Source: Acidobacteriaceae bacterium (GTDB taxonomy: Bacteria > Acidobacteriota > Terriglobia > Terriglobales > Acidobacteriaceae). From it: a stretch of 64,000 nt of DNA. Positions 693-58,145 of the stretch are shown here, one piece after another. The stretch lies in the NCBI GenBank assembly GCA_027452245.1, contig DAIDGW010000143.1, positions 1-64,000 of the forward strand. The letters run 5' to 3'. Position numbers and translations under genes: made by a program. Numbering within the stretch: the stretch's first letter is position 1; each line of letters opens with the position of its first letter. The notes beneath the pieces were generated by a model. That model was not told the origin of the DNA, ran no database searches, and was given only the letters and a program-made list of their open reading frames with translations.

Positions 693-714
693 TATATTCG
701 TTATTTCGAATATA
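693..714 (+). promoter_or_regulatory. inverted-repeat operator of the ArsR regulator
   Basis: TATATTCG and CGAATATA form a perfect 8-base inverted repeat separated by six bases (TTATTT), ending 12 bases before the arsR ATG. The surroundings are AT-rich in an otherwise GC-rich region. ArsR/SmtB repressors commonly bind such AT-rich imperfect palindromes over their own promoter, so this is the likely autoregulatory operator. The function is inferred from position and symmetry. Confidence 0.7.
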
Positions 715-726
715 CTAATAGTATTG

Positions 727-1083
727 ATGAGTGACGCTTTACGACAGTTCAAGAGTGAGATTTTTCAGGGGCTGGCAAATCCGACCCGGATCGCCATCGT
801 AGAACTCTTGCGCGAGGGCGAACTGCCCGCCGGAAAACTGATTGATAAACTCGGGATCGAGCAGGCCAATGCTTCCCAACATCTGGCAGTCCTCCGGGCC
901 AAGCAAATCGTGGTGAGCCGCAAAGTAGGCAATCAGGTCTACTATTCGATCCGTGATCGTGCCCTGATCGAGGTCCTTGATATTTTGCGCCGTTATTTCT
1001 ACGCGCAACTCAACACCACAGTGACCATGCTGAAGGAAGCCGCGAGGGAGACACCAAAATCCCGTCTTGTCACACGTCGATGA
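727..1083 (+). CDS. ArsR-family winged-helix transcriptional regulator
   Basis: This 118-residue protein has the compact ArsR fold: LANPTRIAIVELLREGEL at the start of the wHTH, the recognition helix ANASQHLAVLRAKQIV at about 48-63, and the wing VVSRKVGNQVYYSIRD. The sequence contains no cysteine, so it lacks the ELCVCDL-type thiol site of metal-sensing members. The signal is therefore not a classical thiol-bound metal. The ATG at 727 is preferred over the adjacent TTG at 724. The gene overlaps dabA by four bases (ATGA), so it is translationally coupled to it. An inverted repeat at 693-714 is the likely self-operator. It probably represses the downstream dab genes, but the inducer is unknown. 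Confidence 0.88.
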   Translation: MSDALRQFKSEIFQGLANPTRIAIVELLREGELPAGKLIDKLGIEQANASQHLAVLRAKQIVVSRKVGNQVYYSIRDRALIEVLDILRRYFYAQLNTTVTMLKEAARETPKSRLVTRR

Positions 1084-3905
1084 CCGGCGCTGGCCCCTCC
1101 AAGTCATCCCGAATCGGGCGATTGCGCCACGTGATGGAGCACGCCGCTCATCCGCTTCCCCGCCAGGGGCCCATTGGAATCTTCGTGCACCACAATACTT
1201 TGCACGCCTTTGAACATCTGCCTTTCGAAGAGGCGGTAAAACAGGCGGGGCAACTGTTTGAAGCCGAACCGTACATGAGCGAGGCGCGCTATCGGAGTGA
1301 ACTGTCGCGCGGAAGGATTCAACTCGTCGATGTCGATGCCGTCATCGACCGGGAACCAGATTCGCTGATCTTTTCGGGACTGAGCCGGAGTTCACTGCGG
1401 CGGGCAATGATTACACCCGGAGTCCGCGAGTTTGACGGGGCGACGATTGTTTGGCGGATCGAGCAGGGCGATCTGGCTAAGGACTTTCAAGCCCCTGCGC
1501 TGCGGATATTGTTCGACGCTTGCTTTACGCGCGCGGTGCCGCACGAAGAAGAGCCTGCCGCGCCTCGTCCCGTGGACGAGGTGATCCATCCCTGGCTGAT
1601 CCGGCTTTGCTCCGTCTTTTTGGATCAAGGCACGGCCTATTGGCCGATGCCCAACCGCGAGAAGGGATTCTACGAGAGCGTGCGGACGCTGCTCTCCGGG
1701 GGAGGTGGGATTTTCCCCAAATACTTAGTAGGGCTGGGCGAGGAGTTTCGCAGACAGCAGCATCTAGGGTTTTCGGCAGCGGATTCAGTGCTGGATTATC
1801 TGGACAGCATAACCCCGGAAGAAACGGAGTGGGCCGAAATTGTCCAGGCCGAACTCTTAGCGCTCCCCGGCTGGGCTGGGCTCATGCGCAAGCTTGAGGA
1901 AGAACCCACTCTGGCGCCCCATCACATCCTGCCCTGTTCTCTCATGGACTTTCTGGCGGTACGACTGACGATGGCACGGATCGCGGCGCAAAGAGGCGCA
2001 GCAGAGACGATTCCAGAAGAGAGCCCGCTTAAAACGCAGGAGAGAAGGCGTTTGAGCCGCACGGCGCGGATCTATGACGCCGCCCGGGTATTGCGACTTT
2101 CCGCCGAGGAAGTAGCGAGGCTTTCTCAATCGGAGTGGGTGGTGTTTTCCAGCGAGATCAAAGCCTTCAACGGGCTGGAGCGCCGCCGCGTACTGCACCT
2201 TGCCTACGAACGGGCTCACGAACGCGAGATTCTGCGCGGGTTGGCTAGTCACAGAAAATACCGCGGCTTATTCGATCAAGGGCAAAGACCTGTGGCGCAG
2301 GTATTCTTCTGCCTCGACGAGCGCGAAGAATCTATGCGGAGAGCGCTCGAAGAGACTTCTCCGGCAGTCGAGACCCACGGGGCAGCCGGATACTTCGGGG
2401 TAGCCGTGGATTACAAGGGGATCGATGATCCCCATGGGGCAGCGTTATGTCCAGTGGTGGTCAAACCAAAGCATGCCATTGTGGAACAGCCAAAAGCCGG
2501 AGACGGTTCCGTACTGAACAGCCGCCGTTGGCGTCGTCGAATTCTTGGGCTGCTCATGCGCAATTCGTTTGTCTCTTCCAAGACATTGCTACGAGGCTGG
2601 CTGTCGACCGCGGCCCTTGGCTTGCTTTCTGCAGTGCCCTTGATCGGTCATCTTCTGGCGCCGCGACGTTATGCGCTCCTGCGCGAATGGCTGAACAAGG
2701 CATTTTTGCCTGAGCCGCGGACCGAACTCACGCTGATGCGGAACACCAGGCAATCCCGCGGCGCCGTATCCGGACTGTTGATGGGATTCACCGCAGAAGA
2801 GAAAGCAGAACGTGTGGCGAGCGTCCTGGGTCCGGCGGGCCTGGTGCACAATTTCGCGCGGCTGGTGGTAATCCTGGGGCACGGCTCGTCAAGCCTCAAC
2901 AATCCGCATGAATCGGCGCACGATTGTGGCGCCTGCGGCGGGCGACGGGGCGGACCGAACGCGCGCCTTTTTGCCGCCATGGCGAACCGGCAAGAAGTCC
3001 GCGAGCGGTTGCGGGAAGAAGGAATCGATATTCCTCCAGACACGTGGTTCGTCGGCGGGTATCACGACACGTGCAATGACGGCATCGATTTGTTCGACCT
3101 GGATGCTGTGCCCTCAACGCATTTGCCTGATGTGGAGTCAATTCGCAGGGCTTTTGATCACGCGAGAGCGCAGAACGCCCTCGAGCGCTCCCGGAGATTT
3201 GAATCCTGCCTCGCGAATGCGGACACAAAACGCGCTCTGCGTCATGTAGAAGAGCGCAGCGAGCACCTCGCGCAGCCGCGGCCGGAATACGGACATTGCA
3301 CGAATTCGGTCTGCATCATCGGACGGCGCAGACTGACGCGGGGCCTCTTCCTCGACCGGCGGGCTTTTCTGCTTTCCTATGATTCGAGTGTAGATCCCGA
3401 CAACGACGCACTAGCGGCATTGCTGGCGGCGGCGGTTCCCGTCTGCGCCGGGATCAGCCTTGAATATTACTTCTCATTCGTGGACAACGACCGGTACGGG
3501 TGCGGAACAAAACTACCGCACAATGTGACCAGCTTAATGGGAGTGATGGACGGTCACGCCAGTGACCTACGCACGGGATTGCCCTGGCAGATGGTTGAAA
3601 TTCACGAGCCGGTCCGGATTCTATTCGTGGTCGAAACTACTCCCGGCAGGCTGGAGAAAGTCATTGACATCAGCCCGGCACTGAAGCAACTTCTTGAGAA
3701 CCGCTGGATTCGACTGGCCACGATTGATCCGGCATCGGCACGGGTTCATGTCCACCGGGACGGCGGATTTGAAGAGTTCCACGAGGACCTGGAACGCCTG
3801 CCGGTGGCGCTTTCCTCCTACGAATGGTACGCCGGGAAACTCCAGCATCTTTCGATGGCCTGGATTCAAACTCCTCGAACGGCGACAGGGGACGGCCTGC
3901 GGTGA
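1080..3905 (+). CDS. dabA: DabA, probable inorganic carbon transporter subunit (DUF2309/UPF0753)
   Basis: This 941-residue protein carries the signatures of DabA, the cytoplasmic carbonic-anhydrase-like subunit of the DAB complex. In characterised DAB systems it works with the membrane subunit DabB to turn CO2 into bicarbonate in one direction, driven by a cation gradient. Visible motifs are FFCLDEREES (Cys and Asp zinc-site residues, about 411-413), LGHGSSSLNNP with the zinc His at about 600, and AHDCGACGG with the second zinc Cys at about 616. The C-terminal third has YGHCTNSVCIIGRR and KLPHNVTSLMGVMDG, also family hallmarks. It starts inside the arsR stop codon and ends overlapping the GTG of the next gene, so the operon is tightly coupled. 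Transport activity is inferred from homology. Confidence 0.92.
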   Translation: MTGAGPSKSSRIGRLRHVMEHAAHPLPRQGPIGIFVHHNTLHAFEHLPFEEAVKQAGQLFEAEPYMSEARYRSELSRGRIQLVDVDAVIDREPDSLIFSGLSRSSLRRAMITPGVREFDGATIVWRIEQGDLAKDFQAPALRILFDACFTRAVPHEEEPAAPRPVDEVIHPWLIRLCSVFLDQGTAYWPMPNREKGFYESVRTLLSGGGGIFPKYLVGLGEEFRRQQHLGFSAADSVLDYLDSITPEETEWAEIVQAELLALPGWAGLMRKLEEEPTLAPHHILPCSLMDFLAVRLTMARIAAQRGAAETIPEESPLKTQERRRLSRTARIYDAARVLRLSAEEVARLSQSEWVVFSSEIKAFNGLERRRVLHLAYERAHEREILRGLASHRKYRGLFDQGQRPVAQVFFCLDEREESMRRALEETSPAVETHGAAGYFGVAVDYKGIDDPHGAALCPVVVKPKHAIVEQPKAGDGSVLNSRRWRRRILGLLMRNSFVSSKTLLRGWLSTAALGLLSAVPLIGHLLAPRRYALLREWLNKAFLPEPRTELTLMRNTRQSRGAVSGLLMGFTAEEKAERVASVLGPAGLVHNFARLVVILGHGSSSLNNPHESAHDCGACGGRRGGPNARLFAAMANRQEVRERLREEGIDIPPDTWFVGGYHDTCNDGIDLFDLDAVPSTHLPDVESIRRAFDHARAQNALERSRRFESCLANADTKRALRHVEERSEHLAQPRPEYGHCTNSVCIIGRRRLTRGLFLDRRAFLLSYDSSVDPDNDALAALLAAAVPVCAGISLEYYFSFVDNDRYGCGTKLPHNVTSLMGVMDGHASDLRTGLPWQMVEIHEPVRILFVVETTPGRLEKVIDISPALKQLLENRWIRLATIDPASARVHVHRDGGFEEFHEDLERLPVALSSYEWYAGKLQHLSMAWIQTPRTATGDGLR

Positions 3906-5242
3906 ACGCCTTTCAGAACATTCTGGTTTTTGTCGTGGTAGCTCCCGCGGGCATCTTTGCAGTATTTGCGTTGCTATGGCTGCTTGGTTGGAATCCAAGC
4001 GAGCGCTTGCTGTCCGGAACCACAGGGATCACATTCTCCGCCTGCAGCGCTGGAGTAGCGGCACTGATCTGGAAAACCTCTTCCGCATTAAGTGTTACCG
4101 CAACTTTTGGCAGCTGGTTCGCGGTGGGTACGTATCACTTTCCATTGGTATTGATGGTTGACCGGCTATCGGTTCCTTTTGTCGCCTTAGCCGTGGTACT
4201 CTCCGGACTAATCGGCCAGTTCTCGGCGACCTACCTCCATCGTGAGTCTGGTTTCCTGCGGTTCTTCCTGTTGTTGCACTTGTTCGCATTCGGATCCTTA
4301 CTCGCCTTCGCCGCGGGTTCCTTCGACCTGTTGGCCGCAGGATGGGAGATCGTCGGCATCACTTCCGTGCTGTTAATCGGATTTTTCGAGCGGAGGCCCG
4401 CTCCCGTCGAAAACGGACTTTATGTCTTCGGGATATACCGCACGTGTGACATGGGGTTGCTCGTGGCTATCTTCGCCATGCACCATTGGGCGGGAACAGC
4501 ATCTTTTGTTGCTGGATTCCCCCGCTTCACCGGCGCACAGGAGGTGATCATCTGTCTTCTTCTGCTCTTTGCAGCATCCGGAAAAGCTGCGCAGGTGCCT
4601 TTTTCCGGTTGGCTTCCACGGGCGATGGAGGGACCCACGCCGTCAAGCGCCATCTTCTATGGAGCGATCTCCATCCACGCGGGGGCGTACCTGTTGCTTC
4701 GTGCCCAGCCCTTGCTCGCTCAATCGGTGATTGCTTCCTGCCTGGTTATTCTGATCGGCGCCATTACCGCTATTCATGGAACTATTGTTGGTCGGGCCAG
4801 CGCCGATGCCAAGACATCGCTCGCTTATGCCACATTGACGCAAGTGGGCATCGTGTTCATCGAAATCGGGCTTGGATGGAGATGGCTGGCGATAGCGCAC
4901 ATTCTGGGAAATGCCACGATTCGCACCATGCAGTACCTGCGCGCGCCCTCAATGCTTCACGACTACCACCAGATGCACTCTGCCATTGGAGGTGAACTCT
5001 CACCGACCGGAACACAACTGGAGGAGATGCTACCGGAGAAAGTGCATCTATGGCTCTATCGTTGGGCGCTCGATCGTGGTCATCTGGACACCATGACTGA
5101 GCGATGGATCATTGATCCTCTGTCGCAACTTTCCGCCTATCTGTCCCGGGGGGATCAGCGTCCCTCGCCCTCCCCTGCTCCAATCCCTACTGGATGCGCC
5201 GCCGAGCCTTCGACATCGGGATCAAGTCAAGGTGGTAATTGA
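3902..5242 (+). CDS. dabB: DabB-like proton/cation-conducting membrane subunit (NuoL family)
   Basis: This 446-residue, strongly hydrophobic protein resembles NuoL/MrpA-type antiporter subunits. The GTG at 3902 overlaps the dabA stop (GTGA) and is preferred to an upstream in-frame start that would lie inside dabA. Key features are AAGWEIVGITSVLLIGF at about 146-160, carrying the conserved TM5 glutamate, and GKAAQVPFSGWLP followed by AMEGPTPSSA, the TM7-8 lysine and loop signature. The C-terminus is short compared with NuoL and lacks the long lateral helix, as expected for DabB. It would conduct cations and dock DabA at the membrane. A role in CO2 capture is inferred from pairing with dabA. 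Confidence 0.87.
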   Translation: MNAFQNILVFVVVAPAGIFAVFALLWLLGWNPSERLLSGTTGITFSACSAGVAALIWKTSSALSVTATFGSWFAVGTYHFPLVLMVDRLSVPFVALAVVLSGLIGQFSATYLHRESGFLRFFLLLHLFAFGSLLAFAAGSFDLLAAGWEIVGITSVLLIGFFERRPAPVENGLYVFGIYRTCDMGLLVAIFAMHHWAGTASFVAGFPRFTGAQEVIICLLLLFAASGKAAQVPFSGWLPRAMEGPTPSSAIFYGAISIHAGAYLLLRAQPLLAQSVIASCLVILIGAITAIHGTIVGRASADAKTSLAYATLTQVGIVFIEIGLGWRWLAIAHILGNATIRTMQYLRAPSMLHDYHQMHSAIGGELSPTGTQLEEMLPEKVHLWLYRWALDRGHLDTMTERWIIDPLSQLSAYLSRGDQRPSPSPAPIPTGCAAEPSTSGSSQGGN

Positions 5243-6750
5243 TGATAGTACCGGAATGGGCTCTCCATACGTCATTTTTGACCAGCGCCTCGATTGCGGC
5301 TCCCTGGGTTGCTGCCGGTTTCCTGACAACCTTGCGGCGACAGGTCCGGACCTTCGGATGTATTGCGGCGCTCCTGTCCATCCTTGCTAGTACAGGGCTT
5401 GTTTGGCAGGCGCCCAAGGGTGAGTCACTGTACGAAACGTTGATGCTGCTATTTTCCAGCCTCACTTTCGGCGCAATTCTGCTGCTGCCGCGACGTGATG
5501 CAGAGGCGGGTGTGATCGGCGGAATTCTCATTCTGCTGGGATCGACACTCCTGGCCTACTCGACGGGGAACCTGCTCGTCCTGCTGGGAGCATGGATTCT
5601 GTCCAGTCTCCCGTTTTTGTGGCCCGGGTGGTTCCGGTCTCACACTTGGCGTCCCGCGGTTTCTCTCGTATTTTCCGCTCTTGCGCTCGCGGCGGCGATT
5701 GGCATCATCGCGGGCAGCACCAGAGTCGTTTCAATTGGGAATCTGAAGGGACAGAGCCCAGGCGGAATTGCAGCATTTGCCCTGCTGATCGTCGCCACGA
5801 TCTTTCGCAAAGGGATTCTCCCCTTCCATGCCTGGGTAGCAGATGCCGCTGAGAGAGGCCCATTGGTGCCTACGGCTCTTCTCCTCAATGGCCACTTGGG
5901 GGCGTTGTTGGTCGTCAAGTTGATTGTCCCTTTATTTCCCGAGACCGACCATCTGTTCCCGATCGTTTCCTATTTCGCGATAGCCACCGCGGTTTTTGTC
6001 GCCGTGCGAGCACTTGCCGAGAACTCGCCGCGACGGTTGCTTGCCTTTCTTGCTCTCAGTCAGTCAGCCTGCATCTTAACCGGCCTGGAGAGCCGAACCG
6101 CGGAAGGAATGACTGGCGCCCTCGTGCACTGGGTCGTGGTGACGGTGTCCACGGTGGGCCTTTTCGGAATTTTGCGACTGCTTGAGGTTCGCTTTGGCGA
6201 GAATCTGAGCGCGAGCAGACATTTGGGTTTAGCTCAACATGCACCGCGACTTGCCGTCTCCTTCGTCATCCTAGGATTGGCCTTGGTCGGCCTGCCGGGC
6301 ACGCTGGGTTTCTGCTCTCAGGACTTACTGATCCAGGGAACACTCACGACCCACCCTCTCACCGGATTGCTGCTCCCCATTGCGACAGCGATGAATGCGG
6401 TGAGCTTCTTTCGTTTGTTCACCCGTCTTTTCCTGGGTAAGCAGCGAACGGGATTCACGATTGCAGCGGACGCGTTGCCACGCGAGCGTTGGGTCCTGGC
6501 TGGCATTGTGTTGTTTGTCGTCCTGGGAGGCCTGTTCCCAAACGAAACCGTGATTGAGCATTCGTCCGGAGTCGATGTGGGCGGGACGACCCGTCGTTTC
6601 GATGACCGCGACATCGTCTATTCGAATAACAGTTCGTCCCCGCAGTTCCGATCAGGTGAACCCAGGTTGATCGCTGCGCAGCAGGTTCATGGGAGCAAGG
6701 CCCGCATCGCCCAAAGTGCAAGGGCTCCGAGGGCCTCCACGGAATTCTGA
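5242..6750 (+). CDS. second NuoL/M-like antiporter subunit of the dab operon
   Basis: This 502-residue polytopic membrane protein starts with an ATG that shares one base with the dabB stop (TGATG), which points to translational coupling. FRKGILPFHAWVADAAERG (about 186-204) matches the TM7 lysine and loop signature of the proton-pumping NuoL/M/N family, and FVILGLALVGLPGTLGFCSQ matches the TM11-12 region. At the expected TM5 position the sequence reads LLGAWILSSLPFLW, with no glutamate, so the usual Glu/Lys pair is incomplete. The hydrophilic tail after about residue 435 is Ser/Arg-rich and unlike known families. It may be a structural or regulatory partner of DabB. The function is inferred from context only. 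Confidence 0.78.
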   Translation: MIVPEWALHTSFLTSASIAAPWVAAGFLTTLRRQVRTFGCIAALLSILASTGLVWQAPKGESLYETLMLLFSSLTFGAILLLPRRDAEAGVIGGILILLGSTLLAYSTGNLLVLLGAWILSSLPFLWPGWFRSHTWRPAVSLVFSALALAAAIGIIAGSTRVVSIGNLKGQSPGGIAAFALLIVATIFRKGILPFHAWVADAAERGPLVPTALLLNGHLGALLVVKLIVPLFPETDHLFPIVSYFAIATAVFVAVRALAENSPRRLLAFLALSQSACILTGLESRTAEGMTGALVHWVVVTVSTVGLFGILRLLEVRFGENLSASRHLGLAQHAPRLAVSFVILGLALVGLPGTLGFCSQDLLIQGTLTTHPLTGLLLPIATAMNAVSFFRLFTRLFLGKQRTGFTIAADALPRERWVLAGIVLFVVLGGLFPNETVIEHSSGVDVGGTTRRFDDRDIVYSNNSSSPQFRSGEPRLIAAQQVHGSKARIAQSARAPRASTEF

Positions 6751-6804: not shown

Positions 6805-8301
6805 CTACAACGTCTGCAGGAAGTTAACCAAGTCCTGCATTTGCTGGGATGAAAGGCCAATCTGGAAGCGCTTGTTATAGAAATTAACCACTTGGGAAAG
6901 GTTTGCAGCCGCCCCATTGTGGAAATATGGAGCACGGGCGGCAAGCCCTCGCAAGATCGGGCCCTTGATACGTCCGATATCGCTGCATTGTCCCGAGATC
7001 AAGCCTTTTCCCGGATCACTGGTATAGAAAACCTGCCCTGCCTGCGTGCCTTGAGTGCACACCAGTTCGAATACGGGAGCGGTCGGCTGCTGCAGTTGCT
7101 GTAGCCCGGCGATGATGTTGGGATCTGTTTCGTACTGCAGCGAATGGCTCGTGCCAATATCCAGCGGCAATGGGAATGAGTGATCACCCACATTCGGAGC
7201 GTCATGGCAGGTGGTGCAAGTTCCAGCAATGGTTTGCGTGCCTGTCGTTAGGCCCGGAACATCGCTGATGGTCAGGGCTTGCGTATTGAATATCTGTTCG
7301 CCACGGGCAATCGAAGCCTGTCGACTATTGCGGGAATTCTGCCATGCCGTATAGATCGTGAACACGTTGGGATTAAACGGTTGCCCGTTCGGATCTCCGC
7401 CCAGCGAATCGTTGATACCCGGATAGTACTGCTGAGTGGGCAGGAATTGTGGCCCACCTTGCGATCCTTTCTGTCCATTCAGATTGCCGGCAAAGAAGTC
7501 ATACAACTGCGCTGAGTTGAGGGCGAGTTCGAAGCTCACAATCTGGCTCAGTTGCGTAGAGGTTGGCGGTTGTGTGGCCTGGGCATGAGTCAGCGTGGCA
7601 TCAATGGCCTGCTGGGTCAGGTCTGTGTTTAGATTCGCGGCGAAAGTCTGCTCATTATTTAAGGGATAGGTGACCGATTCCCGTCCATCGAACATGACGG
7701 CACTCAGGAAACCGAGATTCGTGGCCGGCAAAGGCCGCCGATACATTGAGGCGGTTTGCTGCCCCTGCGAATCAGTTGTTAAAGCGCAGCCGTACGGATC
7801 TTCTACAGCCGTGATGGTGAATTGCGGCGGGTTGGCATCAGTCGTGTTGGGAGGAACCTGTATGCCGATGCGAATCAATCCATTGTTGACGACGAGAGTG
7901 TTATTCACCGGGCCCGTTGGGCACGTTGAACCATCGACTTGAGCGAAGAGCGGATCTTTTCCGTTGGTGATGTAATACCGCAACTGCGCGTCGACGGCGC
8001 TCAACCCAAAGCCGTCGCTGGCAGCGTGACACGTTGCGCAAGTGCGGCCATTGGTACCCAACGTCTGAAAGAAAGGTCCGCTTATATCTACTGAACCTGT
8101 GGTGCTGTTTGTCGCGGAGAAACCGGCGAGGTCCAGGAATGGGAGAAGGTTGGGAAGATAAATATCTGCGATCGCCGATCCGGTCGTAACAATGACAAGA
8201 ATGGCGACTAATACAATCACTCGACGGCGCAGACTGTTGTGAGCAGGGATTTTGCCCAGCAAGCCGGAAAGGAACTCGGGCATTCGCGTTTGATAGAACA
8301 T
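6805..8301 (-). CDS. diheme cytochrome c peroxidase/MauG-like exported protein
   Basis: This 498-residue protein has two CxxCH haem sites: CATCH at about 88-92 and CTTCH at about 362-366. It also has the family ending ARAPYFHNGAAANLSQVVNFY. An N-terminal basic stretch (LRRR) and a hydrophobic segment near residues 28-45 form a signal or anchor, so it acts in the periplasm. Members of this superfamily reduce peroxide or oxidise other substrates with electrons from small cytochromes. The substrate here cannot be read. The second in-frame ATG (8301) sits seven bases after AGGAG and is preferred to the one at 8307, which lies too close. The gene converges on the dab operon. Confidence 0.85.
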   Translation of the reverse strand: MFYQTRMPEFLSGLLGKIPAHNSLRRRVIVLVAILVIVTTGSAIADIYLPNLLPFLDLAGFSATNSTTGSVDISGPFFQTLGTNGRTCATCHAASDGFGLSAVDAQLRYYITNGKDPLFAQVDGSTCPTGPVNNTLVVNNGLIRIGIQVPPNTTDANPPQFTITAVEDPYGCALTTDSQGQQTASMYRRPLPATNLGFLSAVMFDGRESVTYPLNNEQTFAANLNTDLTQQAIDATLTHAQATQPPTSTQLSQIVSFELALNSAQLYDFFAGNLNGQKGSQGGPQFLPTQQYYPGINDSLGGDPNGQPFNPNVFTIYTAWQNSRNSRQASIARGEQIFNTQALTISDVPGLTTGTQTIAGTCTTCHDAPNVGDHSFPLPLDIGTSHSLQYETDPNIIAGLQQLQQPTAPVFELVCTQGTQAGQVFYTSDPGKGLISGQCSDIGRIKGPILRGLAARAPYFHNGAAANLSQVVNFYNKRFQIGLSSQQMQDLVNFLQTL

Positions 8302-8379
8302 AAACATTCTCCTGAGTGTGTTTTGATTTTTCTTTACCCAGTTATTTCCCCAAAGCTCGGCCCGTGGTGCTCAAACTTT

Positions 8380-9144
8380 CTATTCTGCTTTTACCGGGGC
8401 ATTGTGCCTCACGTTGGAGGGTTTGCCTATAGGAATCAGCATGGGAACCCGCCGCTGATAGTCAAGGTATGCATTGCCAAAGGCATGGATCAGGTCGCGT
8501 TCTTCGAAATAAATTCCGACCAGAATGTATCCAGTACTCGCGACCGAAAACAGCAAATGTCCCGCAGTCATCACGGGCGCACACCAGAACGCAATGACAA
8601 AACCAAGATAGATCGGGTGCCGTACGAACCGATAGAAGAGGGGTGCGCGGAGCGCCGGGCGATGAAACTCTTTTCCCCGCGCATACGCCCACACTTGCTC
8701 CAACCCGAACAGTTCGAAGTGATTGATCAGAAAAGTGCTGAGGAGCAGAATGGCCCATCCCATCCAAAACAGGAGGCTGAGCGCGGAACCGGCAGCGGTG
8801 CCGCGTAAATCCCACACCACAGTCGGGATTGGCCGCCACTGCCATATCAGCAATGCAAGTGCGAGGGTGGCTGCGAGCACAAACGTGCTGCGCTCGATGT
8901 ACCAGGACACAATCCGTGTCCATCGCTGCTTGAAACCTCGCCGCGCCATGATGCTGTGCTGGAGAGCAAATACACTCAGCAGCAAAGCGTCGATGAGTAC
9001 CGATTTCACTGGCTGGGAAATTGGTCCAGAGTCGATCGTCTTGGGGACAATAGTCTCTCCCAGGAAGAAAATCGCATAGGCGAACGTTCCCAGGAAGAAG
9101 AAATAGGCGGCTATGCCGTACAGCAGTGCAAGAATTCGTTTCAC
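8380..9144 (-). CDS. mddA: methanethiol S-methyltransferase (MddA-like, NnrU/ICMT fold)
   Basis: This 254-residue integral membrane protein has about five to six hydrophobic segments. The motifs FVRHPIYLGFVIAFW and YFEERDLIHAFGNAY are the SAM-binding RHPxYxG and EERD signatures of the isoprenylcysteine methyltransferase fold. The N-terminal AIFFLGETIVPKTID stretch is characteristic of MddA, which methylates methanethiol to dimethyl sulfide. The GTG at 9144 follows GAGGTG by six bases and gives the usual family length. A longer in-frame reading to 9282 adds a non-homologous leader. It stands between a cytochrome and a kinase gene on the same strand, with no obvious methanethiol source nearby. 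MddA assignment is by motif, and a related thiol methyltransferase cannot be excluded. Confidence 0.8.
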   Translation of the reverse strand: MKRILALLYGIAAYFFFLGTFAYAIFFLGETIVPKTIDSGPISQPVKSVLIDALLLSVFALQHSIMARRGFKQRWTRIVSWYIERSTFVLAATLALALLIWQWRPIPTVVWDLRGTAAGSALSLLFWMGWAILLLSTFLINHFELFGLEQVWAYARGKEFHRPALRAPLFYRFVRHPIYLGFVIAFWCAPVMTAGHLLFSVASTGYILVGIYFEERDLIHAFGNAYLDYQRRVPMLIPIGKPSNVRHNAPVKAE

Positions 9145-9339
9145 AAAATTCACCTCAAGCCATTCTGTCTGCACCAGTTCGTCGCCCGATCGCAATCGGA
9201 TGAAGTCCCCGACGCAGTGGTTATTTCTCCAGGACAGACCGGAATTACAGCCTCTATTTAGTAAAGCGGAAACGGTGAGCAAAAGACGACAGGCAGATTG
9301 AAAATATTTTGATCGACTCAGCTAGGGTTTGGGAACTTC

Positions 9340-34727: not shown

Positions 34728-34757
34728 TTGACTGTTTCCGGCGAAAGGTGGTATGGC
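34728..34757 (+). promoter_or_regulatory. candidate sigma-70-like promoter of the TonB receptor gene
   Basis: TTGACT and TATGGC are separated by 18 bases and end 26 bases before the start codon. The -10 box lies within another TGGTATGG copy, so a bound regulator would block it. The -10 is a poor match, so confidence is low. Confidence 0.35.
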
Positions 34758-34783
34758 TGTCGGACCACAACTGGAGGGGTTCC

Positions 34784-37700
34784 ATGTTGAACCAGCGCGT
34801 CGGCAGTACTCTGCTCGATTTCCGCAATCCGGCCGTGTTCCTAGTGTTGCTATTTGCAGCAGTGATTCTGGTTTCGATACCAGCCCTGAGTCAATCCACC
34901 GTAGGAAGAATCCTGGGAACAGTGACTGATCAGAGCGGGGCTGCGGTGCCGCAAGCCACGGTCACGATCACCGATGTGGATCGCGGAAGCTCACGGACGC
35001 TGACCACGGATGATTCCGGATCGTATGCAGCGCCGGACCTGCAGCCGGGCACATACCGAATTCGGGTTGAGGCAAAAGGATTCAAAACTCTCGAGAAAGA
35101 GCATGTTGTTGTCGAAGTTGCTACCGACGTACGCTCCGACTTCGGGTTGCAGCCTGGTCAGGTGAACGAAACCATCGTTGTCTATGAAGATGTCCCTCTC
35201 GTGAACACTACCTCCGCGACGCTGGGCGGAACGTTAAGCAATCAGCAGATCAACGATCTCCCGTTGAACGGACGCAACTACGAAAACCTGCTGCAACTTC
35301 GTCCCGGAGTGGTGCGGTACCCGGGTGGGGGATTCTCCACTACCAGCAGCAACGGACTGCGTGCGGAAGATAACGACTATCTGATCGAAGGGCTTTTCGA
35401 CAGCGAGCCATACTCCGGACAAGCGATTGTAAACGGGGCGGGCATCGCAGGAGATTCCGCAACCATTCTTCCCATCGACGCAATCCAGGAATTCAACATC
35501 CAGCAGAATCCGCCGGCAGAATACGGATGGAAGCCCGGATCGGTAGTGAACGTGGGCTTGAAGTCTGGGACGAACACGATTCACGGCAGCGCGTTCGCAT
35601 TCGGGCGCGACGGGGTAATGGACGCGCGCAACTACTTCAACACTGTGCCCAATACAAAACTGCCGAGGACACTGGAACAATTTGGGGGCAGCTTGGGGGG
35701 AGCCATTATCAAAGACAAGCTGTTCTACTTCGGTTCGTACGAAGGGCAGCGCTACAATGTAGGCAATTCCTTTGGAGGCGTAACCAGCCCCTCGATGGTT
35801 TCGATGCCGGCCAACGGAACCTGCCTGTCGATCACAGGCGACTGCGCCGATAGCATTCCAAACGCGATCGCAGATCTTCAAGCGGCGGGCGTAAAGATCA
35901 GCCCCGCAAGCTTGAAAGTAGCGGGCTGCGCTATGTCGGGCGGAACTGTTACCTGTAACGGCAGCGGGTTTCCCATAAATAACAACCCGACAATCAACAT
36001 TCCCAACGGATTCAACAACAATGTCGGCGTTGACAATGCGGTTGCAAAGATTGATTACAAACTCAATGACCGACACAGTATCAGCGGGGTCTATTTCTTC
36101 GGAAATAACACCGGAACGGTTGAAGATTTCCCGGAACTGCAGAAGAACTGGCTCTCCGACATTCATACACGCGCCCAAGTGGTAAGCGGAGACTGGATAT
36201 GGACGCCCGGCACGCGCTGGGTGAACGAATTGCGCACAGGGTACAACCGGCTGTATCAGCCCACCCTGCCCGGCGACCTCAACACTCCGGCCTCAGGCTA
36301 TGGGCTCGATACGGGCGTGAGCGGACCATACACCGGGGGCTTGCCGCGAATCGGATTCGGAGGATATTTCTTCCCCGGCCTCGGTGGATTCAAATGGCCG
36401 AAGTTCCAGGGGCCGGACAGCATCACGCAGTTCATCGACCACATTTCCTATACCGCAGGAAAGCACTCCCTGATGTTCGGTGGAGAGTTCCACGTCAACC
36501 AGGTCACGAACGCAGCATACGGCAATGCGCGCGGAAGCATTACGTTTCTTGGAGGCAACACACCGAATCCACTGAATCCTGCAGCAACATTGAACACCAC
36601 GACCCTGGAGGATTTTTTCGCCGGAGCTCCGCTGAAGGCGTCAGTCGAAATCGGCAACCCTACCCTGCATTTGCATAACTGGGCATACGCAGGATTCTTT
36701 CAGGACGATTGGAGAGCCTCGCGCACGCTTACTTTGAATTTAGGTATTCGCTACGAATACAACTCCGTGATCCAGGAACGGAATAATCTGCTGGGAAACT
36801 TCGATCCCAATCTCGGAATGGTGCAGGTTGGCAAGCAGATCGGGAATATCTATAACCCTGACCGCAATAACTTCGGGCCTCGCCTGGGATTTGCCTGGGA
36901 TGTGAAAGGTGATGGGAGCACAGTGCTGCGGGGTGGAGGCGGAGTGATTTATGAAACCGTGAACTGGCAGTCGTTCATTGCTTTCAATAACGCGTTTGGA
37001 CTGGGCAGCGTCCCCACGGGAGCAATCATCAACGCGGCGGGGGGCACGGCTGGCGGAACGATCACGACGGGAAATATTACGGTATTTCCTAACTTCCCAT
37101 GGGATAACGGTCCAGTCTACGGAAATAATAGCCAGATCAATTGCTATAACAGCCCGTGCCCAATCATGACCATCGATCACAATTATTCGACCCCGTACGT
37201 GGCCGACTGGACGGTTAGTCTGGAGCATGCCTTTACGCCCAACTTATCACTGGACGCGGCCTATGTAGGCAATCACGGAGCGAACCTGACCGGCATTCGC
37301 GATATCAATCAGCCGCCAGTGGGATCGGGCTATTCCAGCCTGTGCACGACAGATCCCAACTGCGAACAGGATCTGCGGCCCTACGCCAAGAAGTTTCCTT
37401 ACCTGAGCAACATCTTCCAGATGGGGAATGTCTACCGCTCAAACTACAACGGCCTGCAAGCCACATTAAACGCGCGAAACTTCCACGGGCTGAACATGGT
37501 GCTGGGCTATACCTATTCGCATGCGCTCGATGATGTCGCGGCTAATTGGGACTTCGGCTACGGTTCCGGTCTTCCGCAGAACTCTTATAATCTTGCGCAG
37601 GAGTACGCCAATAGTGACTTCGATGTCCGGCACCGTTTGACCATCTCGCTGACCTACGCGATTCCAGGCCGAAAAGGATTTGGCCAGATGCTGGAAGGCT

Positions 37701-38350
37701 GGGAAGTAGATTCGATTGCCACCATCCAGAGTGCGCAGTACTGGGGGCCAATGGATGAAGGCACGGATGCCGCCGGCGTAGGCCCCCTTCCGGTTAGTCC
37801 ACCGGCAAATGAACCCATCCGCTGGGACTTTTACGGGAATCCTTCGGATTTCAAATCTGGACCAACACCGCTTCCCTTCTTTCCAGGCAGCCATAATTCG
37901 GCGGCGCCAACCACCAACGCCAGTTGTAATGCACAGGCTCTGGCTCTCGATGGCGGTCATGCCGGAGGCCCCGCAACGACATCGCTTGCGTCGTTTGGCT
38001 GCTACGCGAAGGGAAGGTCGTACATGATCCCTCCCCCGCTTGGTCAGTTCGGAACAATGCGGAGAAACATCTTCCCGGATTCCGGCTTCCGAAACCTGGA
38101 TTTGGCTCTGGCGAAGAACTTCCAGATCGGAGAACGGCTGCGCACGCAATTCAGGGCGGAGTTTTTTAACATCTTTAACCATCCGAATTTCGCCAATCCG
38201 TATGGAGGACAGAATGGATACGGGCAGAACGATCCATCGGCTTCCGGCTTCGGCTGCGGATGCGCCACCCCCGATGTGGCAGCGGCGAATCCCGTCATCG
38301 GTTCAGGAGGAAGCCGAGCCGTACAACTCGCATTGAAGTTCATCTTCTGA
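34784..38350 (+). CDS. Oar-type TonB-dependent outer-membrane receptor
   Basis: This 1188-residue protein has a signal peptide (NPAVFLVLLFAAVILVSIPA). A carboxypeptidase-regulatory-like domain at about 35-110 follows (GRILGTVTDQSGAAVPQATV to FKTLEKEHVVVEV), then a plug (NQQINDLPLNGRNYENLLQL) and a large beta-barrel ending in VQLALKFIF with terminal Phe. GGAGGGG precedes the ATG at 34784. Such acidobacterial receptors import oligosaccharides or other large substrates with TonB energy. It shares a regulatory region with the GntR-controlled oxidoacid operon and is followed by a secreted hydrolase, so it probably imports that pathway's substrate. Confidence 0.9.
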   Translation: MLNQRVGSTLLDFRNPAVFLVLLFAAVILVSIPALSQSTVGRILGTVTDQSGAAVPQATVTITDVDRGSSRTLTTDDSGSYAAPDLQPGTYRIRVEAKGFKTLEKEHVVVEVATDVRSDFGLQPGQVNETIVVYEDVPLVNTTSATLGGTLSNQQINDLPLNGRNYENLLQLRPGVVRYPGGGFSTTSSNGLRAEDNDYLIEGLFDSEPYSGQAIVNGAGIAGDSATILPIDAIQEFNIQQNPPAEYGWKPGSVVNVGLKSGTNTIHGSAFAFGRDGVMDARNYFNTVPNTKLPRTLEQFGGSLGGAIIKDKLFYFGSYEGQRYNVGNSFGGVTSPSMVSMPANGTCLSITGDCADSIPNAIADLQAAGVKISPASLKVAGCAMSGGTVTCNGSGFPINNNPTINIPNGFNNNVGVDNAVAKIDYKLNDRHSISGVYFFGNNTGTVEDFPELQKNWLSDIHTRAQVVSGDWIWTPGTRWVNELRTGYNRLYQPTLPGDLNTPASGYGLDTGVSGPYTGGLPRIGFGGYFFPGLGGFKWPKFQGPDSITQFIDHISYTAGKHSLMFGGEFHVNQVTNAAYGNARGSITFLGGNTPNPLNPAATLNTTTLEDFFAGAPLKASVEIGNPTLHLHNWAYAGFFQDDWRASRTLTLNLGIRYEYNSVIQERNNLLGNFDPNLGMVQVGKQIGNIYNPDRNNFGPRLGFAWDVKGDGSTVLRGGGGVIYETVNWQSFIAFNNAFGLGSVPTGAIINAAGGTAGGTITTGNITVFPNFPWDNGPVYGNNSQINCYNSPCPIMTIDHNYSTPYVADWTVSLEHAFTPNLSLDAAYVGNHGANLTGIRDINQPPVGSGYSSLCTTDPNCEQDLRPYAKKFPYLSNIFQMGNVYRSNYNGLQATLNARNFHGLNMVLGYTYSHALDDVAANWDFGYGSGLPQNSYNLAQEYANSDFDVRHRLTISLTYAIPGRKGFGQMLEGWEVDSIATIQSAQYWGPMDEGTDAAGVGPLPVSPPANEPIRWDFYGNPSDFKSGPTPLPFFPGSHNSAAPTTNASCNAQALALDGGHAGGPATTSLASFGCYAKGRSYMIPPPLGQFGTMRRNIFPDSGFRNLDLALAKNFQIGERLRTQFRAEFFNIFNHPNFANPYGGQNGYGQNDPSASGFGCGCATPDVAAANPVIGSGGSRAVQLALKFIF

Positions 38351-46277: not shown

Positions 46278-48593
46278 ATGAGCAGATTCGCAGATTTACT
46301 GCGCAAGGACCAGCCGGACGATGTGTCGTGGGTTTCGGATCAAACAGAACTCCTCGGCGCACCACAGCAACTGCGTCTTGCCTCAAACAATCGTCTCCCC
46401 ACTCCTGAGCCAGCCGGCACCGGGGACTGGGCTCGAGCGTTCGCTGCGCTACGCAAACACTGGCGAAAATCCGTCATCTTTGCGGTTTCCGTGATGATTA
46501 CCGTAGTCCTGCTGACAATTCTTACCAAGCCGGTTTACACGCCGGTCGCACGAGTCGAGATTGATCCCCCTGGGGCCGAACTATTCAGTTTGGATGCTCG
46601 GGGAGGGCCAGAGAGTGCGCCTGACTACCTCGAGACACAGGCACGCAACATGCAGAGCGACCAGTTGCTGATTTCGGTAATGAAGCAACTGCAACTTGAG
46701 CAGCTACCTGAGTTCACAAAGAAAAGTGTTGCGTCCAAAGTTGTCGGCGCGACCATCTCCGCAATCGACCGCGTTCCGGACTGGCTCTGGCGGACCGACA
46801 GCAGCCGTTCTGAAGTTGCCTCCGGGGCAGAAGTGCTTAATCCCGCGCAAGCTTCAGCCCTGCGCATTATGCAAGAGCGTCTCTCGGTTGAACGTGATAC
46901 AGCGAGCCGGCTGGTGAATGTGAGTTTCACGACCCATGATCCGGTGCTCTCGGCAACGATCACGAATATGCTTGTGCACTCCTTCATTGAGCGTAGCTAT
47001 CAGACTCGGCATGCAGCCATAATGGAATCAACTGGATGGTTGTCACGCCAATTGGACGACATTCGCTCAAAAATGGAGACCTCCAATCGTATCCTGGCCG
47101 ATTTTCAGCGCAATAGCGGAATTACAGATATCGACCAGAACCGAAGCACCGTCTCGGAACGTGTAGGAGAACTTTCCCGCCAGAAGACCCAAGCCCAAAC
47201 CGAACGAGTGCAAATAGAAGCCTATCTGCGAAAAGCGCGGGAGGGTCAAGTTGACTCGTTGCCTCAGGTGCAGAGCAACCAGGTGATTCAGTTGCTGATA
47301 CAGAAATTAGCCGAAACTCGGGCTGAACTCTCTCAGACTCTGGCGGTTTATGGGAAGAACCATCCCAATTCCAAAAAGCTAGAAAACCAAGTCGAAGAAC
47401 TGCAATCACAGGTCAAGTTGCAGCGCAATGCGATCGTTGCTCAGATGCAAACCAGCTATTCCGCTGCGCTGTTTCGCGAGGAGATGCTGGATGACGAATT
47501 GCGTGGCACTACACGCGAACTCGGTCAGATGGCCCAGTATGTGGAACTTAAAAGAGAAACACAGGCAAATTCGGAGTTGTACAACGCACTCTATGCTCGT
47601 GTTAAGGAGGCCGGAATTGCAGCGGCCTCGAAGTCAATCAATGTGAGGGTTATCGACGAAGCACGGGTTCTGGACAAGCCGACTAAGCCGTTGCCTCTCG
47701 TTAATCTTGGGATTGGTCTTTGCGTAGCTCTTTCTGGTGGAATTCTCCTGGCGTTCGTCTTTGAAGTTTTCGACACCAAGGTGAGAACTCTGGAAGATGT
47801 AAAGCGTTCCATTGGAATCTCGACCATTTCTATGATTCCAATAGCCGACGGAAATGGCCGCAAGTCTGTGTTCGGCTCCCTATCTTCGGCATTCGGATCC
47901 CGGTCAAAATTGTTCCAAGCTCCGGCTTTCTTTTTTCTTGACCAGCCTGCTTCGGAGCAGTCAGAGGCCTTTCGTGGAATTCAGACGTCGTTGATGTTGT
48001 CGCGTCCGGGCCCCCCTCCCCGCATTCTTTTGGTGGCTTCGTCTCTCCCCGGCGAAGGAAAAACCACTGTTGCGATCAATCTCGCGGCCATGCTGGCGCA
48101 ACGCGGCAAGACTTGTTTGTTAGATGCCGATTTGCGCCGACCGGCCGTCGCCCGAGCCTTCCATCTGCCCGATGGTGCCGGGCTGGCGGAATACCTTTCA
48201 GACTCTCTTCCACTGGAAACCCTTTTCTCGACAGTTCCTCATATCCCGGCTCTGACCGTAATCCCGGGTGGTAAGTCACTGCGTGATCCCGGGAGGTTCA
48301 TCAATACCGACAACATGCGTACGCTTCTGCAAAAGCTCGGACGAATTTACGACTTTGTGGTAATTGACTCCGCGCCAATTCTGCCATACGCGGATGGTCG
48401 AATCCTCGCTGCATTAGCAGAAGGAGTGATCTTCGTCGCCCGCGCAGGCGAGGTCACACGTGCAGCCATGTTGCGTTCGTTGGAGTTGCTGGAGCAGGTG
48501 CACTCAGCCCCGATCACTGAAGTCATACTCAACGCCGCACATTCAGAATCACACCTCTATGGCTACCGGTATCAGTACCGCGAATCTGCTTAG
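46278..48593 (+). CDS. polysaccharide co-polymerase/tyrosine autokinase (Wzc-like BY-kinase)
   Basis: This 771-residue protein has a Wzz chain-length domain between two membrane segments (about 70-90 and 475-495), with coiled coil between (VSERVGELSRQKTQAQTERV). The cytoplasmic BY-kinase domain has Walker A LPGEGKTTVAIN (about 589-600), Walker A' CLLDADLRRP and Walker B DFVVIDSAP. The C-terminus carries a tyrosine cluster (HLYGYRYQYRE), the autophosphorylation site. It controls polymer length and export through phosphorylation cycles. No Wza-like export protein or phosphatase gene is adjacent. GAGG lies before the ATG. Confidence 0.93.
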   Translation: MSRFADLLRKDQPDDVSWVSDQTELLGAPQQLRLASNNRLPTPEPAGTGDWARAFAALRKHWRKSVIFAVSVMITVVLLTILTKPVYTPVARVEIDPPGAELFSLDARGGPESAPDYLETQARNMQSDQLLISVMKQLQLEQLPEFTKKSVASKVVGATISAIDRVPDWLWRTDSSRSEVASGAEVLNPAQASALRIMQERLSVERDTASRLVNVSFTTHDPVLSATITNMLVHSFIERSYQTRHAAIMESTGWLSRQLDDIRSKMETSNRILADFQRNSGITDIDQNRSTVSERVGELSRQKTQAQTERVQIEAYLRKAREGQVDSLPQVQSNQVIQLLIQKLAETRAELSQTLAVYGKNHPNSKKLENQVEELQSQVKLQRNAIVAQMQTSYSAALFREEMLDDELRGTTRELGQMAQYVELKRETQANSELYNALYARVKEAGIAAASKSINVRVIDEARVLDKPTKPLPLVNLGIGLCVALSGGILLAFVFEVFDTKVRTLEDVKRSIGISTISMIPIADGNGRKSVFGSLSSAFGSRSKLFQAPAFFFLDQPASEQSEAFRGIQTSLMLSRPGPPPRILLVASSLPGEGKTTVAINLAAMLAQRGKTCLLDADLRRPAVARAFHLPDGAGLAEYLSDSLPLETLFSTVPHIPALTVIPGGKSLRDPGRFINTDNMRTLLQKLGRIYDFVVIDSAPILPYADGRILAALAEGVIFVARAGEVTRAAMLRSLELLEQVHSAPITEVILNAAHSESHLYGYRYQYRESA

Positions 48594-48656
48594 AGTTATT
48601 TCAGCGGATATTATTCCCAGCATCAACTGTGCTCCCACTAGTTAAGGAGAACTCTC

Positions 48657-49826: not shown

Positions 49827-49848
49827 CAATCCCAGAGTGGGAGGACTT

Positions 49849-51459: not shown

Positions 51460-51545
51460 TTCCCTCGCTTTGCATTCGGGTGCTAGAGGGATCTTCTAAT
51501 CCACATTCCACAACCACAAGTTATTCGGTATTCGGAGGCAGAGCC

Positions 51546-52607: not shown

Positions 52608-52623
52608 CAAGAAGAGTGATCTC

Positions 52624-57879: not shown

Positions 57880-58145
57880 ATGTACTCCTCAATACACGCT
57901 AGTTCGCGTGCGGGGGATTTGAGGTTCTTCTTAGGCAAGGGATCGGCAATTTCAGGCAAGTGGTCAGCTGAACTACCGTCTCTCCCGCATGGCTGTTTAA
58001 TTTTTCAACAGTGAACAGATTGCGGATGCAAAGGAAGAAATCTTACGGGCACCATAAGCGAATTATGCATTTACCACAACGTCACGGAAGTGCATGTCCA
58101 CGACATGAAGATATGACAGTTGTTTGGGCGGCAAGGGTCTGACTT

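What the first reader, a model, noticed from the sequence alone, without database searches (positions are those of the whole stretch)
693..6750. ArsR-controlled dab operon with an extra NuoL/M-like subunit
Four genes (arsR, dabA, dabB, second antiporter-like gene) overlap by ATGA, GTGA or TGATG junctions. Characterised DAB systems work with DabA and DabB. A third coupled membrane subunit and an ArsR repressor suggest a variant inorganic-carbon capture complex in what looks like a heterotrophic acidobacterium, perhaps for anaplerotic bicarbonate.
Basis: partly seen in the sequence, partly recalled or inferred. Interest (0 to 1): 0.62.

Follow-up and report, generated by a model that had tools for sequence, protein, structure and literature searches.

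The report
Three-part CO2-capturing membrane complex operon
A soil acidobacterium carries a repressor-controlled operon for a bicarbonate-making membrane complex that has a third, proton-channel-like part and lacks a key residue of the studied two-part version, so it may couple proton flow to CO2 capture in a different way.

Summary
In detail: arsR, dabA, dabB and a second antiporter-like gene overlap on one strand. The third gene is a fixed part of one deep DabA clade: seen in 73 of 86 loci; 11 misses are contig ends, in 2 the dabB-third pair lies on another contig. The arrangement is not new: COGNAT (2017, PMC5700660) listed it as "clade C". I found in no paper seen how the proteins differ from the solved two-subunit DAB2. 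The zinc site is intact, but finger Glu444, essential in DAB2, is gone (0 of 85, against 24 of 24 two-subunit DabA); a finger-tip Arg stands there in 79 of 85. Leu658 is His (85 of 85), the canonical beta-carbonic-anhydrase position. DabB lacks TM12-15 and has the NuoL interface Glu (75 of 75, against 0 of 23). The third subunit is a complete NuoM-like fold with a TM12 acid (68 of 68). Most likely it supplies the second proton half-channel of a proton-driven vectorial carbonic anhydrase, built like the CupA-NdhF3-NdhD3 end of NDH-1MS. Contacts were not shown (pTM 0.58, 0.53), and all differences date to one branch. ArsR probably represses the operon through a palindrome found once in the genome.

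The parts
694..713 (.). Palindromic operator-like site ATATTCG-N6-CGAATAT, overlapping a TATACT -10-like element (711-716)
   Evidence: Exact TATTCG-N6-CGAATA at one place in the 6.23-Mb assembly; in 14 arsR loci with upstream sequence, window included, 0 mismatches in 4, 1 in 5, 2 in 4, 3 in 1; half-site CGAATAT in 13 of 14; 0 of 62 examined loci without arsR
727..1083 (+). arsR: ArsR/SmtB-family repressor without cysteines
   Evidence: NF033788 85.1 bits over cut-off 55; 14 of 15 orthologues, window included, have no Cys
1080..3905 (+). dabA: zinc beta-carbonic-anhydrase-like subunit (PF10070), 941 aa
   Evidence: PF10070 782.5 bits; C411, H601, C616, D413, R415 at the DAB2 zinc-site positions, invariant in 85 of 85 rows
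2502..2699 (+). Region of the membrane finger of DabA (approximate); no acid where DAB2 has Glu444, conserved Arg505 near the predicted tip
   Evidence: Glu444 position acidic in 0 of 85 three-subunit rows, Glu in 24 of 24 two-subunit rows; Arg505 R in 79 of 85; helical hairpin predicted at low confidence in a relative
3294..3296 (+). DabA His739, at the position of DAB2 Leu658
   Evidence: His in 85 of 85 three-subunit rows, Leu in 24 of 24 two-subunit rows
3902..5242 (+). dabB: short NuoL-like subunit, TM1-11 plus a C-terminal helix, 446 aa
   Evidence: PF00361/PF00662; after the Lys347 position 0 TM-like segments in 65 of 75 and 1 in 10 of 75, against 2-4 in 23 of 23 two-subunit DabB; model of a relative overlays NuoL 1-353 at 1.4 A
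4346..4348 (+). DabB Glu149, equivalent of NuoL Glu144 (Ile151 in DabB2)
   Evidence: Glu in 75 of 75 three-subunit rows, 0 of 23 two-subunit rows
5242..6750 (+). Third subunit: complete NuoM-like antiporter fold, about 14 TM, 502 aa
   Evidence: PF00361 102.6 bits; best NCBIfam hits NuoM, below cut-off; an orthologue's model overlays NuoM/ND4/MrpD/NdhD over nearly full length, Z 40.8-44.7 in the rows shown
6319..6324 (+). Third-subunit Gln360-Asp361 in TM12 (Glu-Asp in most relatives)
   Evidence: Position 361 is D (62) or E (6) in 68 of 68 rows; 360 is E 49, Q 14, D 2, L 2, A 1

Best explanation
The operon encodes a three-subunit, proton-motive-force-driven vectorial carbonic anhydrase. DabA hydrates CO2 at a beta-CA-type zinc site in the cytoplasm. 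DabB is a NuoL-like subunit that has kept the first proton half-channel and the charged pair that in NuoL lies near a neighbouring subunit, but has lost TM12-15. The third subunit is a complete NuoM-like channel that supplies the second half of the proton path, the part which in the two-subunit DAB2 is made by DabB TM12-13 together with Glu444 of the DabA finger. Proton flow inward through third subunit and DabB changes DabA and makes hydration one-way, so bicarbonate builds up in the cell. In this heterotroph the bicarbonate probably feeds carboxylases such as PEP carboxylase. ArsR represses its own operon by binding a palindrome over the promoter; its signal is unknown. Shown: gene order, conservation, residues, predicted folds of DabB and the third subunit. 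Inferred: subunit contacts, proton route, direction, substrate, repression, physiological role.
For: Third gene seen in 73 of 86 rows, the 13 others explained by contig ends (11) or a dabB-third pair on another contig (2). Zinc-site residues invariant in 85 of 85 rows. Glu444 position acidic in 0 of 85 three-subunit DabA, Glu in 24 of 24 two-subunit DabA; the DAB2 paper reports that E444A and E444Q abolish activity and that Glu444 stands where NuoL has Lys399/Asp400 (PMC13144422, read to the end of the Discussion). DabB TM12-15 missing; NuoL Glu144 equivalent in 75 of 75 against 0 of 23; models: DabB matches NuoL TM1-11 plus a stretch on the lateral helix, third subunit matches NuoM/MrpD/NdhD. 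TM12 acid in 68 of 68 third subunits. Precedent: in NDH-1MS a CO2-hydrating subunit sits on NuoL-like NdhF3 next to NuoM-like NdhD3, and NdhF3 keeps the interface ion pairs but lost charges of its lateral channel (PMC6981117, passages). A SulP-family gene lies in 56 of 85 three-subunit loci (55 by clustering; Pfam on two). Palindrome.
Against: No interface was predicted with confidence: DabB+third pTM 0.58 with 8 paired rows, DabA fragment+DabB pTM 0.53 with 18. All the diagnostic changes sit on one long branch with one origin, so their co-occurrence is a single event, not repeated correlation. The finger tip carries a conserved Arg, which could itself replace Glu444 in coupling. No experiment on a member of this clade was found in the papers seen. 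In the window position 360 is Gln, not Glu. Ten of 75 short DabB do show one TM-like stretch after Lys347. In L063 and L064 dabA is not beside dabB-third. Most three-subunit genomes tested also have a beta-CA (14 of 17 handles), so the bicarbonate need argued for the window's organism is not general. SulP was found in none of the 14 other arsR loci, so that neighbour does not speak for the window itself.
Confidence: 0.55

Rival explanations
1. DabA and DabB alone make the carbonic anhydrase pump, and the third protein is an accessory (assembly factor, stabiliser or separate cation/proton antiporter) that is not part of the proton path. The finger Arg505 takes over the role of Glu444.
For: Arg505 is near-invariant near the predicted finger tip (79 of 85); no confident DabB-third interface; MpsC in Staphylococcus was first counted as a third part and later found not to be functional (PMC8552792, passage).
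Against: DabB has lost the helices that in DAB2 complete the channel, and the third gene is present wherever the sequence is complete enough to see it; the NuoL interface Glu is found in 75 of 75 of this clade and 0 of 23 two-subunit DabB.
Confidence: 0.2
2. The complex runs the other way: an exergonic reaction at DabA (for example bicarbonate dehydration) pumps ions out, and extra membrane subunits raise the number of ions moved.
For: Proposed in general form by the COGNAT authors in 2017 before the DAB function was known (PMC5700660, section 10 read); His at position 658 makes the site look more like an ordinary beta-CA.
Against: DAB2 accumulates inorganic carbon in vivo and its uptake is CCCP-sensitive (PMC13144422, introduction); a SulP-family gene in 56 of 85 loci and, in L048, a beta-CA gene suggest uptake.
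Confidence: 0.1
3. Sodium, not protons, is the coupling ion, as argued for MpsAB.
For: MpsAB has been proposed as a sodium bicarbonate cotransporter (PMC6689103, abstract and passages); the third subunit's fold also matches MrpD.
Confidence: 0.1
4. DabA of this clade acts on a substrate other than CO2/bicarbonate.
For: Tunnel residues differ from DAB2: F375 to A in 71 of 85, P704 to V/A/G/M in 85 of 85, H684 replaced (V 51, I 20 of 85), W656 to Y in 80 of 85; long tree branch.
Against: All zinc ligands, the Asp-Arg dyad and His585 are invariant in 85 of 85, and the canonical beta-CA His is present.
Confidence: 0.05

Closest known systems
COGNAT 'clade C' of YbcC/COG3002 operons (Biol Direct 2017, PMC5700660)
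   Same: dabA (ybcC) upstream of the nuoL homologue, with NuoM (COG1008) and often a SulP gene (COG0659) nearby
   Different: Gene neighbourhood only; no function, residues or structures of this clade in the section I read. I did not see its supplementary tree, so identity with this clade is inferred from gene order and neighbours
DAB2 (DabA2-DabB2) of Halothiobacillus neapolitanus, PDB 9rd0 (PMC13144422)
   Same: PF10070 zinc subunit with the same ligands and Asp-Arg dyad; NuoL-like partner; finger region present
   Different: Two subunits; finger Glu444, Leu658, DabB TM12-15 and Ile151 are all changed here; no NuoM-like subunit in DAB2. In the two-subunit loci I examined dabB comes before dabA
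DAB1 of H. neapolitanus
   Same: Described as three-subunit (PMC13144422)
Cyanobacterial NDH-1MS (CupA-NdhF3-NdhD3)
   Same: CO2-hydrating zinc subunit on a terminal NuoL-like subunit next to a NuoM-like one (PMC6981117, passages)
   Different: CupA is a different fold and the complex is driven by electron transfer; here there is no redox arm in the operon. Likeness of working, not of descent
MpsAB (Staphylococcus)
   Same: DabA/DabB homologues in a heterotroph, important for growth at atmospheric CO2 (PMC6689103, abstract)
   Different: Two functional subunits; sodium coupling proposed

Membership tests
PF10070 (DabA / inorganic carbon transporter) superfamily | PF10070 match over the curated cut-off | tested here: met
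   782.5 bits over 25, profile 2-747 of 747
PF10070 (DabA / inorganic carbon transporter) superfamily | Zinc ligands Cys351, His524, Cys539 with Asp353-Arg355 | tested here: met
   Window C411, H601, C616, D413, R415; invariant in 85 of 85 and 24 of 24 rows
PF10070 (DabA / inorganic carbon transporter) superfamily | PMF-dependent CO2 hydration or rescue of CA-deficient cells | not testable with these tools
   Needs an experiment
DAB2-type two-subunit complex | Glu444 in the DabA finger | tested here: not met
   0 of 85 three-subunit rows, no acid within 8 columns in any
DAB2-type two-subunit complex | Leu658, reported strictly conserved in 150 homologues | tested here: not met
   His in 85 of 85
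DAB2-type two-subunit complex | DabB with TM12-15 | tested here: not met
   0 TM-like segments after Lys347 in 65 of 75, 1 in 10 of 75; 2-4 in 23 of 23 two-subunit DabB
DAB2-type two-subunit complex | Finger hairpin inserted between DabB helices | tested here: inconclusive
   Helices 174-202 and 204-227 predicted in the L034 fragment, low pLDDT there, pTM 0.53
COGNAT clade C | dabA upstream of nuoL homologue, NuoM-like gene beside | tested here: met
COGNAT clade C | SulP gene nearby (frequent, not obligatory) | tested here: inconclusive
   SulP in 56 of 85 loci but in 0 of the 14 other arsR loci; the window starts at its contig's first base, so the upstream side is not seen
NuoM of complex I (for the third subunit) | NCBIfam NuoM cut-off | tested here: not met
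   107.5 bits against 550 (NF004500) and 105.2 against 263.8 (TIGR01972)
PF00361 antiporter-like subunits (for the third subunit) | PF00361 match and full antiporter fold | tested here: met
   102.6 bits over 21.5; model of orthologue L070, residues 460-917 of the joined chain, overlays ND4/NuoM/MrpD, Z 40.8-44.7 in the rows shown
ArsR/SmtB repressors | Family model over cut-off | tested here: met
   NF033788 85.1 over 55
ArsR/SmtB repressors | Cysteine metal site of the thiol-type metal sensors | tested here: not met
   No Cys in 14 of 15 orthologues, window included
NDH-1MS | CupA as the catalytic subunit | tested here: not met
   The catalytic subunit is PF10070 over its whole length

The most novel reading that the evidence does not exclude
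A separate, obligately three-subunit class of PMF-driven carbonic anhydrase in which the proton route was moved out of the DabA finger into a dedicated NuoM-like subunit, while the active site holds the canonical beta-CA His. In effect a free-standing analogue of the CO2-uptake end of NDH-1MS without any redox arm, in mostly RuBisCO-less bacteria of at least four phyla.
Probability: 0.45. Interest if true: 0.72.

Novelty: new variant of a known kind. Interest (0 to 1): 0.6.

Why it matters
The 2026 DAB2 structure left open how proton flow drives hydration and pointed to Glu444 as a coupling residue. A natural clade that keeps the zinc site, lacks Glu444, has a shortened DabB and adds a full proton-channel-like subunit is a ready-made test of that model. 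It also puts a bicarbonate-making pump into bacteria that mostly lack RuBisCO (16 of 17 three-subunit genome handles tested), and offers a simple system for how antiporter-like subunits are combined in relatives of complex I.

Tried and rejected
Rejected: that the third gene is a local accident (73 of 86 rows). Rejected: that L063 and L064 lack it (found with dabB on other contigs). Rejected: that the third gene is an ordinary complex I NuoM (below NuoM cut-offs; beside dabB in all 73). Rejected: ArsR as a general regulator of the system (15 of 86 rows). In the neighbour clustering several clusters mixed real genes with reading frames on the opposite strand; the porin cluster's 37 loci came down to 11 when the Pfam-checked porins were used as queries, so only the counts are relied on.

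Structure runs gave no usable interface: pTM 0.58 and 0.53. 9rd0_B (DabB2) is not among the 50 rows shown; this says nothing, since only the top rows are shown. Papers: seven searches and the papers opened gave no description of the residue differences in what I saw. Desmarais et al. 2019 is not held; Schmid et al. 2021 (recalled) was not looked up. Either may mention the third gene. The COGNAT supplementary figure was not seen. gamma- and iota-type carbonic anhydrases were not searched.

Sampling limits: one search kept the 80 loci most like the window's DabA out of 538 confirmed, so the edge of the clade was not sampled. L016 and L048 are the same contig, L093 gives the same coordinates as L059, and L130 is L066 again, so 86 rows are slightly fewer independent loci (L130 was left out of the counts). 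L100 (partial DabA) was dropped before the 85-row counts; incomplete DabB and third proteins were dropped before the 75- and 68-row counts. L133 shows no DabB, hence 23 two-subunit DabB against 24 DabA; L131's DabA carries an internal stop and is partial. The tree used 46 of the 85 three-subunit rows.
Full report
Observation. The window holds arsR 727-1083, dabA 1080-3905, dabB 3902-5242 and a further antiporter-like gene 5242-6750, all on the + strand and overlapping by ATGA, GTGA and TGATG. Pfam and NCBIfam confirm the families. The window's genome has one PF10070 match.

How common it is. Of 396 genomes of the window's phylum (Acidobacteriota, judging by its named relatives) searched with the window's DabA, 11 had a match at E 0.001 or better, 2 of them only short matches near 5e-4. 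I looked at the other 9: 6 have long DabA, short DabB and the third gene (window, L015-L019), and 3 have dabB, then dabA, and no third gene (L020-L022). A scan of named genomes kept the 80 closest of 538 confirmed relatives. With the window and L015-L019 that is 86 rows: dabB in 81, third gene in 73. Eleven of the 13 misses end at a contig end; in L063 and L064 dabA stands apart and dabB plus third lie together on another contig. The titles name Acidobacteria, Verrucomicrobia, Armatimonadetes and Elusimicrobia.

Comparison set. Twenty-four two-subunit DabA came from the window's phylum (3), from the phylum of G401, a Prosthecobacter record (8), and from 13 plasmid records picked for variety from two searches that matched 123 and 122 records. 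dabB lies upstream of dabA in all 23 where it is visible, and no third gene was found in the stretches fetched. In a quick tree of 46 three-subunit and 24 two-subunit DabA the two types are split by a single branch (SH-aLRT 100, length 2.0). One origin also means that all the differences below count as one event.

DabA. All zinc ligands and the Asp-Arg dyad of DAB2 are kept in every row counted. Glu444, whose change to Ala or Gln abolished DAB2 activity (PMC13144422, read to the end of the Discussion), is Glu in 24 of 24 two-subunit rows and acidic in 0 of 85 three-subunit rows; no acid lies within 8 columns. The exact column depends on the alignment (differ by two residues), but the result does not. 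Near the predicted finger tip stands Arg505, R in 79 of 85, against Ser, Thr, Ala or Gly in the 24 two-subunit rows. Leu658, called strictly conserved in 150 homologues in the DAB2 paper and standing where beta-CAs have a transition-state Gln or His, is His in 85 of 85 three-subunit rows and Leu in 24 of 24 two-subunit rows. The same paper found that L658Q in DAB2 did not bring in-vitro activity, and that other Leu658 changes did not impair it in vivo, so His739 need not mean free activity. Ser356 is Glu in 84 of 85, Trp656 is Tyr in 80 of 85, and tunnel residues Phe375, His684 and Pro704 are changed.

DabB. After the Lys347 position the short DabB have 58-122 residues with no TM-like stretch in 65 of 75 and one in 10 of 75; two-subunit DabB have 148-220 residues with 2-4 in 23 of 23 (hydropathy only). 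His260 is Tyr (75 of 75; His in 22 of 23 two-subunit) and Lys347 is Arg (75 of 75; Lys in 23 of 23). Glu149, at the place of NuoL Glu144 and DabB2 Ile151, is Glu in 75 of 75 and in 0 of 23 two-subunit rows. The DAB2 paper says that this NuoL ion pair lies near the subunit interface and that its loss may hold DabB2 open; that a Glu here fits the presence of a neighbouring subunit is my inference. In the models DabB overlays NuoL 1-353 at 1.4 A, and in longer alignments its last helix falls on NuoL residues up to about 560-577, the lateral-helix part.

Third subunit. An orthologue (L070) folds with high pLDDT into an antiporter fold that overlays NuoM, ND4, MrpD and NdhD along nearly its whole length, Z 40.8-44.7 in the rows shown. 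Position 119, where by motif DabB has Glu149, is never acidic (68 of 68). In TM7, 189 is Arg in 64 of 68 and 190 Lys in 59; in TM8, 218 is His in 60; in TM12, 361 is Asp or Glu in 68 of 68 and 360 is Glu in 49, Gln in 14 including the window. One search aligns position 360 with a TM12 Glu of mycobacterial NuoM; that 361 answers to NuoL Asp400 rests on the NuoL motif as I recall it.

Contacts. To test contact I folded dabB+third of L070 as one chain by reading the stop between them as Gly (8 paired rows of 90): pLDDT 91.1, pTM 0.58. A DabA fragment + DabB of L034 (18 paired rows of 73) gave pLDDT 74.9, pTM 0.53. Neither places the subunits with confidence, and DabA with the third subunit was not tried.

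Regulation. TATTCG-N6-CGAATA starts 29 bases before the arsR TTG codon, over a TATACT element, and occurs exactly at no other place in the 6.23-Mb assembly. Of 14 arsR loci with upstream sequence (window included), 4 have it exactly, 5 with 1, 4 with 2 and 1 with 3 mismatches; 13 of 14 keep CGAATAT; 0 of 62 examined loci without arsR have it within 250 bases at one mismatch. ArsR orthologues lack cysteines in 14 of 15, so a thiol metal site is unlikely and the signal is open. Of the 85 other three-subunit loci, 56 hold a SulP-family gene, 38 a histidine-kinase match, 36 a response-regulator match and 11 a porin match to Pfam-checked queries; none of the 14 other arsR loci has the SulP gene.

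Physiology. The window's genome (97.6% complete) gave no match to RuBisCO, beta-CA or alpha-CA and one PEP carboxylase; gamma- and iota-type CAs were not tested. Of 17 three-subunit genome handles searched (G275 and G407 appear to be one assembly), 1 has a RuBisCO-family match (G349) and 14 have a beta-CA. So the system mostly serves organisms without RuBisCO, and in the window's organism it may be the main bicarbonate source (inference).

What is known. The gene arrangement was noted in 2017 as clade C of YbcC operons, with the idea that more membrane subunits move more ions (PMC5700660, section 10 read). The DAB2 paper mentions a three-subunit DAB1, but with a small third protein. In seven library searches (listings and starts of abstracts) and the papers opened (PMC13144422 to the end of the Discussion; PMC5700660 section 10 and passages; passages of PMC10880623, PMC9080137, PMC12628692, PMC8552792, PMC6689103, PMC6981117) I saw no account of the absent Glu444, the His at 658, or the shortened DabB. 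The nearest working likeness is NDH-1MS, where CupA sits on NdhF3 beside NdhD3 and NdhF3 keeps the interface ion pairs but lost charges of its lateral channel (PMC6981117, passages).

Verdict. A real, conserved and previously glimpsed three-subunit class of the DAB family, filed as PF10070/DAC but not as DAB2-type, since Glu444, Leu658 and DabB TM12-15 were tested and not met. The mechanism given is the best reading, at about even odds beyond the parts shown.

Noticed in passing
window 6805-8307 (-): Convergent gene right after the operon for a cytochrome-c-type protein: two CxxCH motifs in the translation and weak RoxA-like/cytochrome c Pfam matches.
   Followed up: no
window 8380-9282 (-): NnrU-like membrane protein, match just under the Pfam cut-off (21.5 against 24.7 bits).
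   Followed up: no
window 34748-38350 (+): 1200-aa outer-membrane beta-barrel protein with a carboxypeptidase-regulatory-like N-terminus (PF25183, PF13620).
   Followed up: no
window 46278-59279 (+): Likely exopolysaccharide cluster: GNVR/Wzz tyrosine-kinase-like protein, O-antigen ligase, beta-helix protein (not all genes between were searched).
   Followed up: no
L061:12635-16733 (-): A second, divergent dabB-like and third-like pair with a SulP gene lies a few kilobases from the first dab operon in a Verrucomicrobiaceae genome.
   Followed up: partly
L063 and L064: Two Verrucomicrobiaceae records have dabA apart from dabB-third; a split operon or assembly breaks.
   Followed up: partly
L037: A contig labelled Fimbriimonadaceae (Armatimonadota) carries DabA 76% identical to the window's and a close relative of its arsR; recent transfer or a misbinned contig.
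   Followed up: no
L019 (genome G349): The only one of 17 three-subunit genome handles tested with a RuBisCO-family match; a possible autotroph with the three-subunit system.
   Followed up: no
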